Shown: piece by piece, positions 1-3,680 of the stretch
How positions within the stretch are numbered: position 1 is the first letter of the stretch
How the letters are laid out: every line of letters starts with the position of its first letter
DNA from: a virus
Reading direction: 5' to 3' (one strand)
DNA: 20,877 nt
IMG/VR virus record: IMGVR_UViG_3300023179_000603
Span: 1-20,877 of that record
Notes under the pieces: model-generated
What the model was told of the DNA's origin: nothing
Database searches by the model: none
Seen by the model: the letters and a program-made list of their open reading frames with translations, nothing else
Program-made: the position numbers and the translations under genes

Positions 1-1113
1 AACCGTTTGTATTTGCATCCTAAGCGTGACTCGCTAATCAAGCGCATCTTCTCTGGCCCACCGGCACAGGCAGAGTTGCCAAACGCAATCAATCGAATCA
101 TCACATCACAGTCTCAGCCCAATATCACCGGCAATGTGAACCTTGGGCTGGAGGGTTCTAACCGTTATATCGCAAGAGTAGCGGAAGAAACGGTGGAGAT
201 GAGAGAATTGTGGGTATGGAATGACGACACAAGCGATTATCAAGTTGTTACAATAGCAAATCCTGATGTTGTTGTGTATGACAGGTCAGGTGAGGCAATG
301 TTCCTCAAGGGCGAATGTCCGTTCATTCAGATTTGCCCTAATCCTTTGTATGACTATTTTTGGGGTCAATCGGAAGTACAGAAGTTAATTTACTTGCAGA
401 TGCTTCGTAACAAGCGCATAGGCGAGATTTCCACTTTGCTGGCAAAGCAGGTGAATCCTCCCAAGGCTTTTACGGGGTTCATGGGCATCACGGATGAGAA
501 AGCATATGCATTGAATATGCCTAACTCCTACGTCATGTCCGACATGCCGGGAGCCAAAGTCGATGAACTATCCCCATCTATTCCAAACGATTTGTTCAAA
601 GAAATCGCCGAAATTGATGCCATGTTCGCAGAGGCTTCAGGAATATCTTCTGTACTCCAAGGTCGTGGAGAAAGCGGGGTGCGCTCTGCTGGACACGCAT
701 CGCAACTTGCTCGTCTTGGTTCATCCCGCGCCAAAAAACGTGCATTAGTCATTGAAGACAGCCTGGAAAAGGTTGCAACCCTGTATCTCAAGCTGATGCA
801 GGCTTATGACAACACCCACTTTGTTGGTGATGACGGCAACCACTTCATTGCCGAGCAATTCACCCATGATTTTGTTGTCAAGGTGGATGCACACTCAAAT
901 TCACCCATTTTCATGGAAGATTCCAGGGAATTGGCGTTCAAGTTGTTTGAGGCCAAGGTTATTGACCGTACTCGTCTGATTGACTTGGTTGATCCTCCTA
1001 TGAAACAATTGTTAAAAGACGATCTGGCAAAAGCAGAGAAAAAGGAAGCACAAAAAGCAGCAATGCAGCCTCCTCCTCAAGCTAAACCAGAGCAACCGAA
1101 AAAAGGTGCATAA
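1..1113 (+). CDS. Portal protein, C-terminal part (5' end outside window)
   Basis: The reading frame is open from base 1, so about 370 C-terminal residues are visible and the start lies upstream. Portals form the dodecameric ring at one capsid vertex through which DNA is packaged and ejected and to which the tail attaches. The visible part has the helix-rich stretch typical of podovirus portals: FWGQSEVQKLIYLQMLRNKR, then KQVNPPKAF, then a long helical segment containing SGVRSAGHASQLARLGSSRA and AKKRALVIEDSLEKVATLYL. The last 35 or so residues are a Lys/Gln/Pro-rich, probably disordered tail (KKEAQKAAMQPPPQAKPEQP). Its place directly upstream of scaffold and capsid genes fits. The stop codon overlaps an ATG (TAATG at 1111-1115). 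The family call rests on motif appearance and gene order, not on a search. Confidence 0.85.
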   Translation, partial: NRLYLHPKRDSLIKRIFSGPPAQAELPNAINRIITSQSQPNITGNVNLGLEGSNRYIARVAEETVEMRELWVWNDDTSDYQVVTIANPDVVVYDRSGEAMFLKGECPFIQICPNPLYDYFWGQSEVQKLIYLQMLRNKRIGEISTLLAKQVNPPKAFTGFMGITDEKAYALNMPNSYVMSDMPGAKVDELSPSIPNDLFKEIAEIDAMFAEASGISSVLQGRGESGVRSAGHASQLARLGSSRAKKRALVIEDSLEKVATLYLKLMQAYDNTHFVGDDGNHFIAEQFTHDFVVKVDAHSNSPIFMEDSRELAFKLFEAKVIDRTRLIDLVDPPMKQLLKDDLAKAEKKEAQKAAMQPPPQAKPEQPKKGA

Positions 1114-1154
1114 TGCTCACAATCAGAATTGGTACAGTTGGTAAACCGGAAGTC

Positions 1155-1162
1155 AAAAGGAG
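1155..1162 (+). promoter_or_regulatory. Strong Shine-Dalgarno before micro-ORF A
   Basis: AAAAGGAG lies four bases upstream of the ATG at 1167. An alternative ATG at 1113, overlapping the portal stop, is in frame and would give a 32-residue product. The strong site just before 1167 and the match to the second micropeptide favour the short form; the coupled 1113 start remains possible. Confidence 0.55.
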
Positions 1163-1166
1163 TTCC

Positions 1167-1211
1167 ATGTATACTCGCAAAATCAAACGTGGTCGCAAGA
1201 CTCGTAGGTAA
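1167..1211 (+). CDS. Micropeptide A, 14 residues, highly basic (putative)
   Basis: Encodes MYTRKIKRGRKTRR; 8 of 14 residues are Lys or Arg. It has a strong ribosome binding site (AAAAGGAG) and ends in TAA. It aligns almost position by position with micropeptide B encoded about 70 bases downstream: both fit [TA]-R-K-x-[KR]-[RK]-G-R-K-[TS]-R-[RK]. Several matched residues use different codons (cgc/cgt, ggt/ggc), which points to conservation of the peptide rather than a recent DNA duplication. The GRK-x-R pattern recalls arginine-rich RNA-binding motifs and protamine-like DNA condensers, but function is unknown. Starting at the upstream in-frame ATG at 1113 would add 18 residues. I do not recognise a named family. 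Confidence 0.5.
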   Translation: MYTRKIKRGRKTRR

Positions 1212-1226
1212 TTCCCCGCAAGGAAT
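1211..1226 (+). other. Hairpin directly after micro-ORF A
   Basis: ATTCC (1211-1215) pairs perfectly with GGAAT (1222-1226) around a 6-base loop. The first base is the last base of the micro-ORF A stop codon. The stem is short (5 bp) and has no T-run, so it is not a classical terminator. Its interest is that micro-ORF B is also followed immediately by a hairpin. Confidence 0.35.
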
Positions 1227-1280
1227 GGGTTATGGCTGCTTCACCCTGAGTAAGTGGCCGCTGTTTGAAAGGTCATGAAA

Positions 1281-1322
1281 ATGGCACGTAAAGCTCGCAA
1301 AGGCCGCAAGAGCCGCAAGTAA
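1281..1322 (+). CDS. Micropeptide B, 13 residues, highly basic (putative)
   Basis: Encodes MARKARKGRKSRK; 8 of 13 residues are Lys or Arg. GAAAGG at 1267-1272 sits eight bases before the ATG at 1281; an ATG at 1275 is also in frame (adding Met-Lys) but is only two bases from the same site. The peptide is a clear sequence relative of micropeptide A: after the first residue or two nearly every position is identical or a Lys/Arg or Ser/Thr swap, with the Gly-Arg-Lys core unchanged. It lies in the portal-to-scaffold interval, so expression with head genes is expected. A role in binding packaged DNA or phage RNA is a guess from charge only. Confidence 0.5.
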   Translation: MARKARKGRKSRK

Positions 1323-1323
1323 T

Positions 1324-1359
1324 CTGGCGGGGTAACACCCTCCAGAGAACTCAGGTTCT
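1324..1359 (+). other. Two stacked hairpins after micro-ORF B
   Basis: The first (1324-1345) pairs CTGG with CCAG, then has a single bulged C, then GGGGT with ACCCT (one G-U pair), closing on an AAC triloop: nine base pairs in all. The second (1346-1359) begins at the next base: AGAAC pairs with GTTCT around a TCAG loop. The direct abutment would allow coaxial stacking. The sequence after it is TCCCCTCTC, not a uniform T-run, so this looks like a structured or protective RNA element rather than a strong terminator. Pairing was done by eye; no folding energy was computed. Confidence 0.45.
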
Positions 1360-1370
1360 TCCCCTCTCAT

Positions 1371-1399
1371 TGGACGTTGGAGAGATGAACTAACGTCCA
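1371..1399 (+). other. 8-bp stem hairpin upstream of the 1421 gene
   Basis: TGGACGTT (1371-1378) is the exact reverse complement of AACGTCCA (1392-1399), enclosing a 13-base loop that contains GGAG and an ATG. It ends about 20 bases before the next gene's ATG and just upstream of that gene's own GAGG site. No T-run follows. It could tune translation, or be an RNA processing or protein binding site; the sequence alone does not decide. Confidence 0.45.
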
Positions 1400-1420
1400 C
1401 CCATTGAATTGAGGATTGAT

Positions 1421-1867
1421 ATGGCAACGGACAGAATGATGGATTTGATTAAGCAGGGGCAAGCTCAAGGGCAGTCTCCTGAAGATTCCAATTTGCCCAC
1501 TCCCGATCAAGCTGGCGCTGGCCCTGATTCTGGTACGCCTCCTATGGCGTCTGCAATGACTACGCCAGAACCCAAAATGGGAAGCAAAGAAGCCGCCAAC
1601 GTCAACTTGCAAATGGCTATGGATTTGATGGAACAATCGCTACCTGCGCTTGGTTCCGAATCTGAAGAAGGCCAAAGCATTATGAAAGCACTCAGTTCCT
1701 TGCACCGGGTTTTTGGTAAGCGCGAAGCAAAGAACCGTGAACTGATGCCAGCAGAAATTCTGCAAATGATTCAAACTCTGCCGCAAGCTGGTGGAGCAAC
1801 GCCAGAGCAGCGTAGCATTGCTCAAGCACCCGTACCGGGTATGTCTCAACCTCCCATGCAAATGTAA
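1421..1867 (+). CDS. Unknown 148-residue Met/Gln/Pro-rich phage protein
   Basis: I do not recognise a named family. The ATG at 1421 has a GAGG site 7-8 bases upstream; an in-frame TTG at 1409 has none and would lie over that site, so the ATG is preferred. The protein opens with a helical start (MATDRMMDLIKQ), passes through a low-complexity Pro/Gly/Ser/Asp stretch at about residues 15-50, has a more ordered helical middle (ANVNLQMAMDLMEQSLPAL and SIMKALSSLHRVFGKRE), and ends in a Gln/Pro/Met-rich tail. The position between portal and scaffold-like genes suggests a head assembly or minor virion protein. Composition and cotranscription support it being real; function is unassigned. Confidence 0.7.
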   Translation: MATDRMMDLIKQGQAQGQSPEDSNLPTPDQAGAGPDSGTPPMASAMTTPEPKMGSKEAANVNLQMAMDLMEQSLPALGSESEEGQSIMKALSSLHRVFGKREAKNRELMPAEILQMIQTLPQAGGATPEQRSIAQAPVPGMSQPPMQM

Positions 1868-1879
1868 CCGGAGAATATC

Positions 1880-2074
1880 TTGGAAATCTTCAAGCCGAAA
1901 GGCAACCCCTCGATCCGCAAGCCGACTGACAACAATATGCAGAACGGCCAAGTTTTCAACCCGCCTCGGTTTAGCCAAATCGGTGGCGGTGGCGACGGTA
2001 CTGCGATCAAAAGCCGCATGACCAAAAACAAAATGACCCTTGAGAAGCCGGGTGGCACTCGTCGGGTTGTTTGA
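1880..2074 (+). CDS. Unknown 64-residue basic protein, TTG start
   Basis: A short frame reading from TTG at 1880, preceded by GGAG (1870-1873) at a six-base spacing, in the 225-base interval between the 1421 gene and the scaffold-like gene. The product is rich in Lys, Arg, Asn and Gly with a GGGGDG run near the middle (NPPRFSQIGGGGDGTAIKSR) and a basic end (KPGGTRRVV). It has no hydrophobic segment. No family was recognised. A TTG start with a well-placed ribosome site, and the fact that it fills an otherwise empty gap in a tightly packed operon, support it moderately. Initiation at an internal ATG (about residue 20) is less likely because no Shine-Dalgarno precedes it. Confidence 0.55.
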   Translation: MEIFKPKGNPSIRKPTDNNMQNGQVFNPPRFSQIGGGGDGTAIKSRMTKNKMTLEKPGGTRRVV

Positions 2075-2080
2075 TTCACA

Positions 2081-2091
2081 TAGGGGATAAA
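2081..2091 (+). promoter_or_regulatory. TAGGGGATAAA leader before scaffold-like gene
   Basis: The 11-mer TAGGGGATAAA ends one base before the ATG at 2093 and contains the likely ribosome site (AGGGGA). The identical 11-mer precedes the ATG of the membrane protein gene at 16551, and TAGGGGAT recurs at 2638-2645 upstream of the capsid gene. Confidence 0.5.
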
Positions 2092-2092
2092 T

Positions 2093-2623
2093 ATGTCACT
2101 TGAAGATGTTTCTTTTGAGGCGCGAGATGAACTCGCATCTTTGTCGCGTCGGTTGTCGGAAGACCCATCGACTCGCAAGGAGTTTTTGCGTCTGACCAAA
2201 AAGGTTCGACCTGATTTGCCAATTCCTGAATTGGACATTGAAGACCGTGCCATGTCTCTGGTGAGCAAGTCGGAAGACCGTGTTGCTCAGATGGAGGCAA
2301 AGTTGGCAGAACGTGATGCAATTGACAAGCTCAAAGAGCGTCGGGCAAACTTGCTGAAAAGTGGTTTGGTTAAGTCAGAAGCAGAGATTGAAGAGGTGGA
2401 AAAAGTCATGATTGACAAAGGTATCCACAATCATGAAGCTGCAGCTGAATACCACGCATGGATGAAGCAGGCGGCAACGCCTACTCCAACTGGCTACAAT
2501 CCAAACCCATTGAAGCAGTTTGATATGTCTGCGTTCCGCAAAAACCCTGTGCAAGCCGCAAGGGATGTTGCCGCGCAAGCATTGAATGAAATTCGTCGTC
2601 CTACACGCCCTATCGGTTTGTAA
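2093..2623 (+). CDS. Scaffolding-like coiled-coil protein
   Basis: 176 residues, highly charged and predicted helical by composition. Scaffolding proteins line the prohead interior and guide coat assembly, then leave. Residues about 60-105 (SEDRVAQMEAKLAERDAIDK onward) look like a coiled coil rich in Glu, Lys and Ala, followed by a helix-loop segment (KVMIDKGIHNHEAAAEYHAW). A Pro/Thr/Asn-rich linker follows (ATPTPTGYNPNP), and the C-terminus is basic (ALNEIRRPTRPIGL), as expected for a coat-binding scaffold tail. It sits directly upstream of the major capsid gene, the standard scaffold position. Low-complexity helical proteins are hard to assign by eye, so the call leans on position. AGGGGA provides the ribosome site. 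Confidence 0.65.
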   Translation: MSLEDVSFEARDELASLSRRLSEDPSTRKEFLRLTKKVRPDLPIPELDIEDRAMSLVSKSEDRVAQMEAKLAERDAIDKLKERRANLLKSGLVKSEAEIEEVEKVMIDKGIHNHEAAAEYHAWMKQAATPTPTGYNPNPLKQFDMSAFRKNPVQAARDVAAQALNEIRRPTRPIGL

Positions 2624-2637
2624 GATAATTTGGTAAA

Positions 2638-2645
2638 TAGGGGAT
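2638..2645 (+). promoter_or_regulatory. TAGGGGAT in the capsid gene leader
   Basis: The third TAGGGGAT in the window, 26 bases before the capsid ATG, followed by its own separate AGGAG site nearer the start. It cannot be the capsid ribosome site at this distance, which hints that the octamer may do something other than, or besides, recruit ribosomes. A chance match to a purine-rich motif is possible. Confidence 0.25.
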
Positions 2646-2663
2646 TGTTTTTAGGAGATTATT

Positions 2664-3680
2664 ATGCCTATTGGTGGCGGTATTTTGCCAGCAGCGGGTT
2701 CGGCGCAATACACCGAGTTGTCTTATGTGACTCGTCGTGCGTTCATTCCCAAGCTCGTAGTTCAACTCTACAACTCAACTCCCCTACTCGCCGCTTTGCT
2801 GGCTAACAGTCAGCAAGCATCTGGCGGTGTGTCGTCAGTCACTGCGCCCGTCCAGGGTTCGCAGATGGTGACTTCTCAGTGGTCGGATTACTCCGGTTCT
2901 TTTAATCAGCCTTCTGTTCAGACTGGTATTACCAACGCTGAATTCAACCTGAAGCTGATGATTGCCCCGGTTCCGTTCCTCGGCATGGAAGGCGCAATCC
3001 AGCAAGATTACGCCATCATCCCTCTGATTGAAGCTCGTATGAATGACGCTGCCAACTCGATGATGGATTCGATGGCAACCTCGTTGTACAACAACACCAC
3101 CAACGCTCAACAATTCATCGGCCTGCCCGGTGCAATTGATGACGGCACGACTCTTGCCACCTACGGCAACATCAACCGCACCACCAACACCTGGTGGAAG
3201 GCCAAGCAATACGCTGCAGGTTCGGTCAACCCGACTCGTCAGAACGTGTTGCAATACATCTCGGGTACTGTGAAGAACTCCGCTGAAGTTCCGACTTTCG
3301 GCGTGTGTGGTTTTGGTACTTGGACGCTGTTGGCTCAAGACTTTGTTGGCCAGGAATCGTATGTCATTACCCCCGGTAAAGGCATTGGTTTTGACAATGA
3401 CGCTGATGGCCCTCAGTCTGGTTTCCGCGCCCTGATGGTTGCTGGTGTGCCGATCTATCCGGATCCGTACTGCCCTGAAGGTACTGTGTACCTGCTCAAC
3501 AGCAACTACCTGTCGCTGTACATCCATGAGATGGGTTCGTTTGCCTTCACCGGCTTTGAATCCACCCTGCCCAACTGGCAAATTGGCTATGTCGGCGCGG
3601 TGCTGACGATTGCTGAACTGGTTGTTACCAAGCCGAAGTCGATGACCAAGGTGACTGGTTACAACTCGCTGACCATTTAA
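2664..3680 (+). CDS. Major capsid protein (HK97-fold type)
   Basis: 338 residues, the usual size for a mature podovirus coat protein. Coat subunits build the icosahedral shell. The order of elements fits an HK97-like fold: an N-arm with YVTRRAFIPKLVVQLYNSTP, a beta-rich E-loop-like region at about 55-100 (SSVTAPVQGSQMVTSQWSDY), a long spine helix at about 116-144 (IIPLIEARMNDAANSMMDSM), an A-domain-like middle, and a C-terminal beta-rich P-domain-like segment with VAGVPIYPDPYCPEGTVYLL. The ATG has AGGAG seven bases upstream, a strong site suiting an abundant protein. Scaffold-like gene upstream and decoration-like gene 12 bases downstream support the call. The fold assignment is by pattern only. 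Confidence 0.85.
   Translation: MPIGGGILPAAGSAQYTELSYVTRRAFIPKLVVQLYNSTPLLAALLANSQQASGGVSSVTAPVQGSQMVTSQWSDYSGSFNQPSVQTGITNAEFNLKLMIAPVPFLGMEGAIQQDYAIIPLIEARMNDAANSMMDSMATSLYNNTTNAQQFIGLPGAIDDGTTLATYGNINRTTNTWWKAKQYAAGSVNPTRQNVLQYISGTVKNSAEVPTFGVCGFGTWTLLAQDFVGQESYVITPGKGIGFDNDADGPQSGFRALMVAGVPIYPDPYCPEGTVYLLNSNYLSLYIHEMGSFAFTGFESTLPNWQIGYVGAVLTIAELVVTKPKSMTKVTGYNSLTI

What the first reader, a model, noticed from the sequence alone, without database searches (positions are those of the whole stretch)
1155..1322. Tandem pair of protamine-like 13-14 residue peptides inside the head operon
Two micro-ORFs, each with a purine-rich ribosome site, encode MYTRKIKRGRKTRR and MARKARKGRKSRK. They match at nearly every position ([TA]RKx[KR][RK]GRK[TS]R[RK]), while matched residues use different codons, which is what selection on the peptide would leave. 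Over half of each peptide is Lys/Arg. They lie between portal and scaffold-like genes, so they would be made with the head. Possible roles are condensing packaged DNA, binding the portal or terminase, or RNA binding (the GRKxR core recalls arginine-rich motifs). Such short ORFs are skipped by standard gene callers.
Basis: partly seen in the sequence, partly recalled or inferred. Interest (0 to 1): 0.75.

Follow-up and report, generated by a model that had tools for sequence, protein, structure and literature searches.

The report
Tiny basic peptide genes in phage heads
A large group of uncultured tailed phages carries one or two overlooked genes for 10-18-residue peptides made mostly of lysine and arginine, next to the genes that build the phage head and usually behind a new RNA pseudoknot; the peptides are clearly under selection, and a role with the packaged DNA is likely but not shown.

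Summary
The two micro-ORFs are real. uORF1 is 1167-1211 (MYTRKIKRGRKTRR) and uORF2 is 1281-1322 (MARKARKGRKSRK). In 63 of 63 distinct portal-selected IMG/VR relatives with a complete gap, at least one such micro-ORF lies between portal and the next head gene; 43 have two. A pattern scan with no context recovered almost only this locus. The motif occurs 263 times in 79 kb of gap and never in 1,279 kb of flanking phage sequence. In-frame pN/pS is 0.32-0.60, against 1.5-4.3 in shifted frames, so the peptides themselves are selected. They persist where the portal is about 28-50% identical and neighbouring genes have moved. They contain no acidic residues and are read with favoured codons.

Searched on its own, the pseudoknot leads to the peptide at 69 of 71 sites; the other two are most likely contig-end truncations.

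Function is inferred. The best reading is a highly expressed nucleic-acid-binding peptide acting in head assembly or DNA packaging. Autoregulation by RNA binding, and an assembly-factor role, remain open.

The parts
1..1113 (+). portal protein, C-terminal part (5' end outside the window)
   Evidence: PF23899 1.5e-6 (below its cut-off), phrog_1216 4.3e-7; 590 relatives in IMG/VR
1155..1162 (+). Shine-Dalgarno AAAAGGAG of uORF1
   Evidence: sequence; (A)GGAG in 107 of 114 relatives, usual spacing 6 nt
1167..1211 (+). uORF1, MYTRKIKRGRKTRR*
   Evidence: conserved in 114 distinct gaps, pN/pS 0.32-0.43 in frame
1212..1225 (+). P1: hairpin TTCC-CCGCAA-GGAA directly after the uORF1 stop
   Evidence: by eye in most relatives with changed stems; 30 nt after the stop fold slightly better than shuffled, 59 of 84: weaker support than for P3
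1227..1259 (+). PK1: H-type pseudoknot; S1 1227-1230/1243-1246, S2 1234-1241/1252-1259
   Evidence: covariation: S2 z=6.7, S1 z=4.8, 0 of 20,000 permutations; compensatory types; no Rfam match
1267..1272 (+). Shine-Dalgarno GAAAGG of uORF2
   Evidence: sequence; (A)GGAG in 128 of 133 relatives
1281..1322 (+). uORF2, MARKARKGRKSRK* (an ATG six bases earlier, 1275, is in frame)
   Evidence: conserved in 133 distinct gaps, pN/pS 0.51-0.60 in frame, CGT/CGC 98% of Arg codons
1323..1346 (+). P3: hairpin directly after the uORF2 stop
   Evidence: mean -9.1 kcal/mol versus -4.6 shuffled, better in 92 of 97; pairing starts at the first base after the stop in 62
1364..1398 (+). PK2: second H-type pseudoknot; S1 1364-1368/1380-1384, S2 1372-1378/1392-1398
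   Evidence: covariation in the relatives that have it: S2 z=6.25, S1 z=3.5; other relatives have a plain hairpin and a TTGACA promoter-like box there
   Evidence: conserved in synteny; no Pfam or PHROG match

Best explanation
uORF1 and uORF2 are two protein-coding micro-genes of a tailed-phage head operon. Each makes a short peptide that is almost only Lys, Arg and small residues, so it is unlikely to fold alone and most likely acts by binding nucleic acid or an acidic surface. Shown: conservation, selection on the peptide, an own strong ribosome site, favoured codons, linkage to portal/head genes, and a conserved pseudoknot leader for uORF2. Inferred: the peptides are made in quantity late in infection, and bind DNA at the portal or inside the head during packaging, much as the microvirus J/VP8 peptides do, either staying in the particle or helping DNA entry. 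The PK1 leader and P3 hairpin that bracket uORF2 most likely set its translation or protect its very short message. Bulk neutralisation alone is unlikely: at an assumed 415 copies each (one per T=7 coat protein) two +8 peptides would cover about 9% of the phosphates of a 35-kb genome, so a local role (portal, DNA ends, DNA-shell contact) fits better.
For: Present in 63/63 portal-selected complete gaps, 43 with two. Specific to the gap, 263 versus 0. pN/pS 0.32-0.60 in frame versus 1.5-4.3 out of frame. 247 peptides with no acidic residue. SD (A)GGAG at 6-8 nt in most. CGT/CGC is 98% of Arg codons in uORF2 versus 68% in portal and 78% in the coat gene. Stays with the head module when neighbours move: L110, L115, L096 keep it behind portal with the next gene displaced; L122 and L164 keep it in front of the scaffold-MCP block with portal divergent; L134 carries it behind a portal only about 36-38% like the annotated relatives. 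Found in GTDB-binned relatives with portal down to about 28% identity. PK1 and uORF2 occur together: 131 gaps with both, eight uORF1-only gaps without PK1, 69 of 71 from the RNA side.
Against: No protein-level or binding evidence. At least one close relative (L211, portal 63%) lacks both peptides, so they are not strictly essential. PMC3281028 states there is no evidence that basic proteins contribute much to neutralising phage dsDNA. Specific residues (GRK core, fixed R/K positions) look more specific than charge alone requires, although AAR-CGN codon distance also hinders K/R exchange. The dedicated RNA leader hints at regulation.
Confidence: 0.45

Rival explanations
1. The peptides are RNA-binding arginine-rich motifs that act on structured phage RNA, first of all on PK1 itself: uORF2 peptide binds its own leader pseudoknot and sets expression of the head operon (autoregulatory RNP).
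For: PK1 and uORF2 are linked from both sides; covarying helices; the GRKTRR core recalls arginine-rich motifs such as HIV Tat (own knowledge, a lead only).
Against: Peptides persist without a recognisable PK1 in distant relatives (L122, L164, L176, L199, L216, L218), and uORF1 has no PK1 in front of it.
Confidence: 0.18
2. The peptides are assembly cofactors that bind an acidic head protein (portal, the 148-aa protein, scaffold) rather than nucleic acid.
For: Strict genomic linkage to portal and head genes; almost no hydrophobic and no acidic residues.
Against: No partner surface identified; 13 residues without hydrophobic anchor give little specificity.
Confidence: 0.2
3. They are leader or arrest peptides: translation of the micro-ORF, not its product, controls the downstream gene through the hairpins.
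For: Conserved C-terminus and stop position, hairpins directly after the stops, pseudoknot upstream.
Against: Fast codons instead of regulatory ones; micro-ORF kept when a different gene or 1-2 kb follows (L096, L110, L115, L213) or when a terminator-like hairpin with a T run follows (L199); copy number varies from one to three.
Confidence: 0.12
4. The conserved thing is a structured RNA and the ORFs are incidental.
For: Two pseudoknots and hairpins with covariation.
Against: In-frame purifying selection with reversed ratio in shifted frames; SD at optimal spacing; peptide found without the RNA.
Confidence: 0.02

Closest known systems
Microvirus DNA-binding protein J / VP8 (phiX174, SpV4)
   Same: Short Arg/Lys-rich virion peptide important for DNA packaging (PMC11281519); encoded among capsid genes (own knowledge).
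   Different: J/VP8 is about 25-40 aa with a C-terminus buried in the coat protein, in ssDNA phages without portal or terminase; here 10-18 aa, no hydrophobic anchor, dsDNA tailed phage, often two copies, pseudoknot leader.
Protamine-like core proteins of eukaryotic dsDNA viruses (adenovirus mu, baculovirus P6.9)
   Same: Small, strongly basic, proposed or known to condense the packaged genome (PMC6163548 abstract; PMC3281028).
   Different: Different viruses and packaging mode; no sequence homology can be tested at this length; condensation not shown here.
T4-type internal head proteins and giant-phage inner-body proteins
   Same: Head-operon products that go into the head with DNA (own knowledge; PMC5694885 listed).
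   Different: Those are folded, protease-processed proteins; these peptides are far shorter.
Arginine-rich RNA-binding peptides (lambda N, HIV Tat/Rev)
   Same: Short basic motif; GRKxR core; pseudoknot nearby (own knowledge, a lead).
   Different: No tested RNA target; peptide persists without the RNA element.

Membership tests
Microvirus J/VP8 | Arg/Lys-rich small protein encoded among capsid genes | tested here: met
   57-63% K+R on average, no acidic residues, in the portal-head gap
Microvirus J/VP8 | C-terminal hydrophobic/aromatic anchor in the coat protein | tested here: not met
   10 I/L/V/F/W among 3,230 residues; C-termini are R or K (by selection of the set, and by eye in loci not chosen for the peptide)
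Microvirus J/VP8 | present in virions and bound to the genome | not testable with these tools
   needs proteomics or structure
Protamine-like viral core proteins | very high basic content, no acidic residues | tested here: met
Protamine-like viral core proteins | condenses the packaged DNA | not testable with these tools
   no biochemical data
Leader/arrest peptides | fixed regulated gene downstream | tested here: not met
   downstream gene differs or lies 1-2 kb away in L096, L110, L115, L213
Arginine-rich motif RNA-binding peptides | binds a defined RNA structure | not testable with these tools
   candidate target PK1 exists but binding is untested
Known phage protein family (PHROGs, Pfam) | profile match | tested here: inconclusive
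   peptides are below the 20-residue limit; the 32-aa version has no match; second micro-ORFs of L176 and L215 match phrog_20273 weakly
Known RNA family (Rfam 15) | covariance-model match of the gap | tested here: not met
   no match at E<=1 in window 1-3000, none at gathering in ten relatives

The most novel reading that the evidence does not exclude
Tailed dsDNA phages of a large uncultured lineage use dedicated genetically encoded protamine-like micro-peptides on their packaged DNA, translated from a pseudoknot-headed mini-message: a packaging strategy not known for tailed phages, with some of the shortest conserved virion genes.
Probability: 0.3. Interest if true: 0.9.

Novelty: new variant of a known kind. 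Interest (0 to 1): 0.72.

Why it matters
It shows a gene of 10-18 codons that is nearly universal in a big phage lineage and missed in the annotated genomes checked (antisense hypothetical genes are annotated in the same gap in two public records). It gives an independent handle, covarying RNA pseudoknots, for finding such genes. If the peptides ride with the DNA, the published statement that there is no evidence for basic proteins contributing much to neutralising phage dsDNA (PMC3281028) has an exception that can be tested directly.

Tried and rejected
Chance or low-complexity artefact: rejected by 0 background matches and frame-specific selection. Incidental ORFs in a conserved RNA: rejected by frame-specific selection. 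Known RNA family: no Rfam match. Distant isolates: Pelagibacter phage HTVC106P and Paenibacillus phage API480 have distant portals and show no such ORF in the gap. PDB search with the two peptides joined: nothing. Host: only metagenome bins with mixed labels (beta-, gamma- and alphaproteobacteria, Acidobacteria, Verrucomicrobia and others), so host not assigned. MAFFT misplaced the S2 3' strand in one clade, so covariation was tested by swapping strands instead; that test does not model phylogeny. The literature library holds open papers only and returned no earlier description; the paper on small phage genes that I looked for by title could not be searched. Structure prediction was not used: the peptides are too short.

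Full report
WHAT WAS CHECKED. The window is a 20,877-base record of a virus fragment. It opens inside a portal gene (weak PF23899 and phrog_1216 matches), and the major head protein lies at 2664-3680 (phrog_9953, 8e-41).

CONSERVATION. A portal search of IMG/VR found at least 590 relatives, of which 80 were kept. Among 63 distinct complete gaps chosen by portal alone, all 63 carry at least one micro-ORF of 9-20 codons with 45% or more K+R and a ribosome site; 43 carry two. With loci from the pattern scan added, 144 distinct gaps all have one or more. The context-free pattern scan (SD, ATG, GRKxR[KR]*) hit almost only this locus; nearly all other hits were out of frame. The motif has 263 hits in 79 kb of gap and none in 1,279 kb of flanks. 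The two annotated genomes from Manatee Spring carry both peptides but the genes are not annotated.

SELECTION. In-frame pN/pS (Nei-Gojobori counts, uncorrected) is 0.32-0.43 for uORF1 and 0.51-0.60 for uORF2. The same bases in shifted frames give 1.5-4.3. Synonymous change is near saturation, so the true ratio is probably lower. Across 247 peptides there is not one acidic residue. Fixed positions are R-1, K-4 and R-5 in uORF1, and K-1 in uORF2 with R-2, K-4 and R-5 nearly fixed; the invariance of the last residue partly reflects how the two sets were sorted by their ends.

DEPTH. A profile search of GTDB genomes gave 17 loci not chosen for the peptide. Clear micro-ORFs are in L205, L206, L207, L210, L212, L213, L214, L215, L216 and L218, probably in L220, and a diverged one in L208. 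None was found in L211, L219 and L221; L209 and L217 end too early. Portal identity there goes down to about 28%. In L122 and L164 the portal is divergent and the micro-ORF heads the coat block; in L110, L115 and L096 it stays behind portal while other genes change.

EXPRESSION SIGNS. (A)GGAG at mostly 6-8 nt in 107/114 and 128/133. Arg codons in uORF2 are CGT/CGC in 98%, in portal 68%, in the coat gene 78%. This suggests high output and speaks against a stalling leader. It is inference, not measurement.

RNA STRUCTURE (new here). Between uORF1 and uORF2 there is a hairpin P1 and an H-type pseudoknot PK1; in genomes without uORF1, P1 follows the stop of a 54-aa ORF instead. Own S2 strands pair far better than strands swapped between genomes (z 6.7, 17 types; S1 z 4.8; 0 of 20,000). 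Clear double changes include GGCUGACUU/AAGUUGGCC, UUCUGCUC/GAGUAGAA, UCUCGCUC/GAGUGGGA and AGCUGCCU/AGGUGGCU; some types keep one or two internal mismatches. Searching IMG/VR for the 5' half of PK1 alone gave 71 distinct sites, 69 followed by a basic micro-ORF; the two exceptions look truncated. Gaps with uORF1 only lack PK1; L096 has uORF2 without it. After uORF2 come a strong hairpin P3 and, in the window's group, a second pseudoknot PK2 (S2 z 6.25). No Rfam family matches. The swap test does not model phylogeny, so the z values are indicative.

MECHANISM. Shown: selected, gap-specific, very short basic peptides tied to the head module. Inferred: nucleic-acid binding in packaging or assembly. 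Charge arithmetic (own calculation) says that stoichiometric amounts would neutralise under a tenth of the genome, so a local role is likelier than bulk condensation. The pseudoknot leader may tune or protect a very short message, or be the target of its own peptide; the data do not separate these.

COMPARISON AND VERDICT. Functionally the nearest thing is microvirus J/VP8 (PMC11281519), but membership fails on the C-terminal anchor. The published position for tailed phages is that there is no evidence of basic proteins contributing much (PMC3281028).

Noticed in passing
window 1364-1398 and homologous place in L003-L024, L033-type loci: A second covarying H-type pseudoknot lies after uORF2; in most other relatives a plain hairpin stands there instead.
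   Followed up: partly
116 of 143 gaps, within 110 nt of the next gene; absent from the window: A TTGACA/T box, likely a late promoter, precedes the gene after the micro-ORFs in most relatives; some add a GTTTGTAA..TTACAAAC inverted repeat.
   Followed up: partly
L026, L003 and most relatives, directly after the portal stop: An unassigned ORF of about 54 aa with a basic tail overlaps the portal stop; in the window it seems deleted down to 18 codons and fused in frame to uORF1.
   Followed up: no
L211: Portal 63% identical but both micro-ORFs and PK1 are missing; the gap runs straight from the 54-aa-type ORF to promoter and next gene.
   Followed up: partly
L085, L196, L119: Three basic micro-ORFs in one gap.
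   Followed up: no
uORF1 and uORF2 of 14 relatives: Arg at position -2 is replaced by Cys (CGC/CGT to TGC/TGT).
   Followed up: no
MW202753 4740-5038, MW202825 25683-25943: Antisense hypothetical CDSs are annotated in the micro-ORF gap, probably spurious.
   Followed up: partly
window 1880-2074: A 64-aa gene whose Arg codons avoid CGA, CGG and AGG in relatives, suggesting high expression.
   Followed up: no
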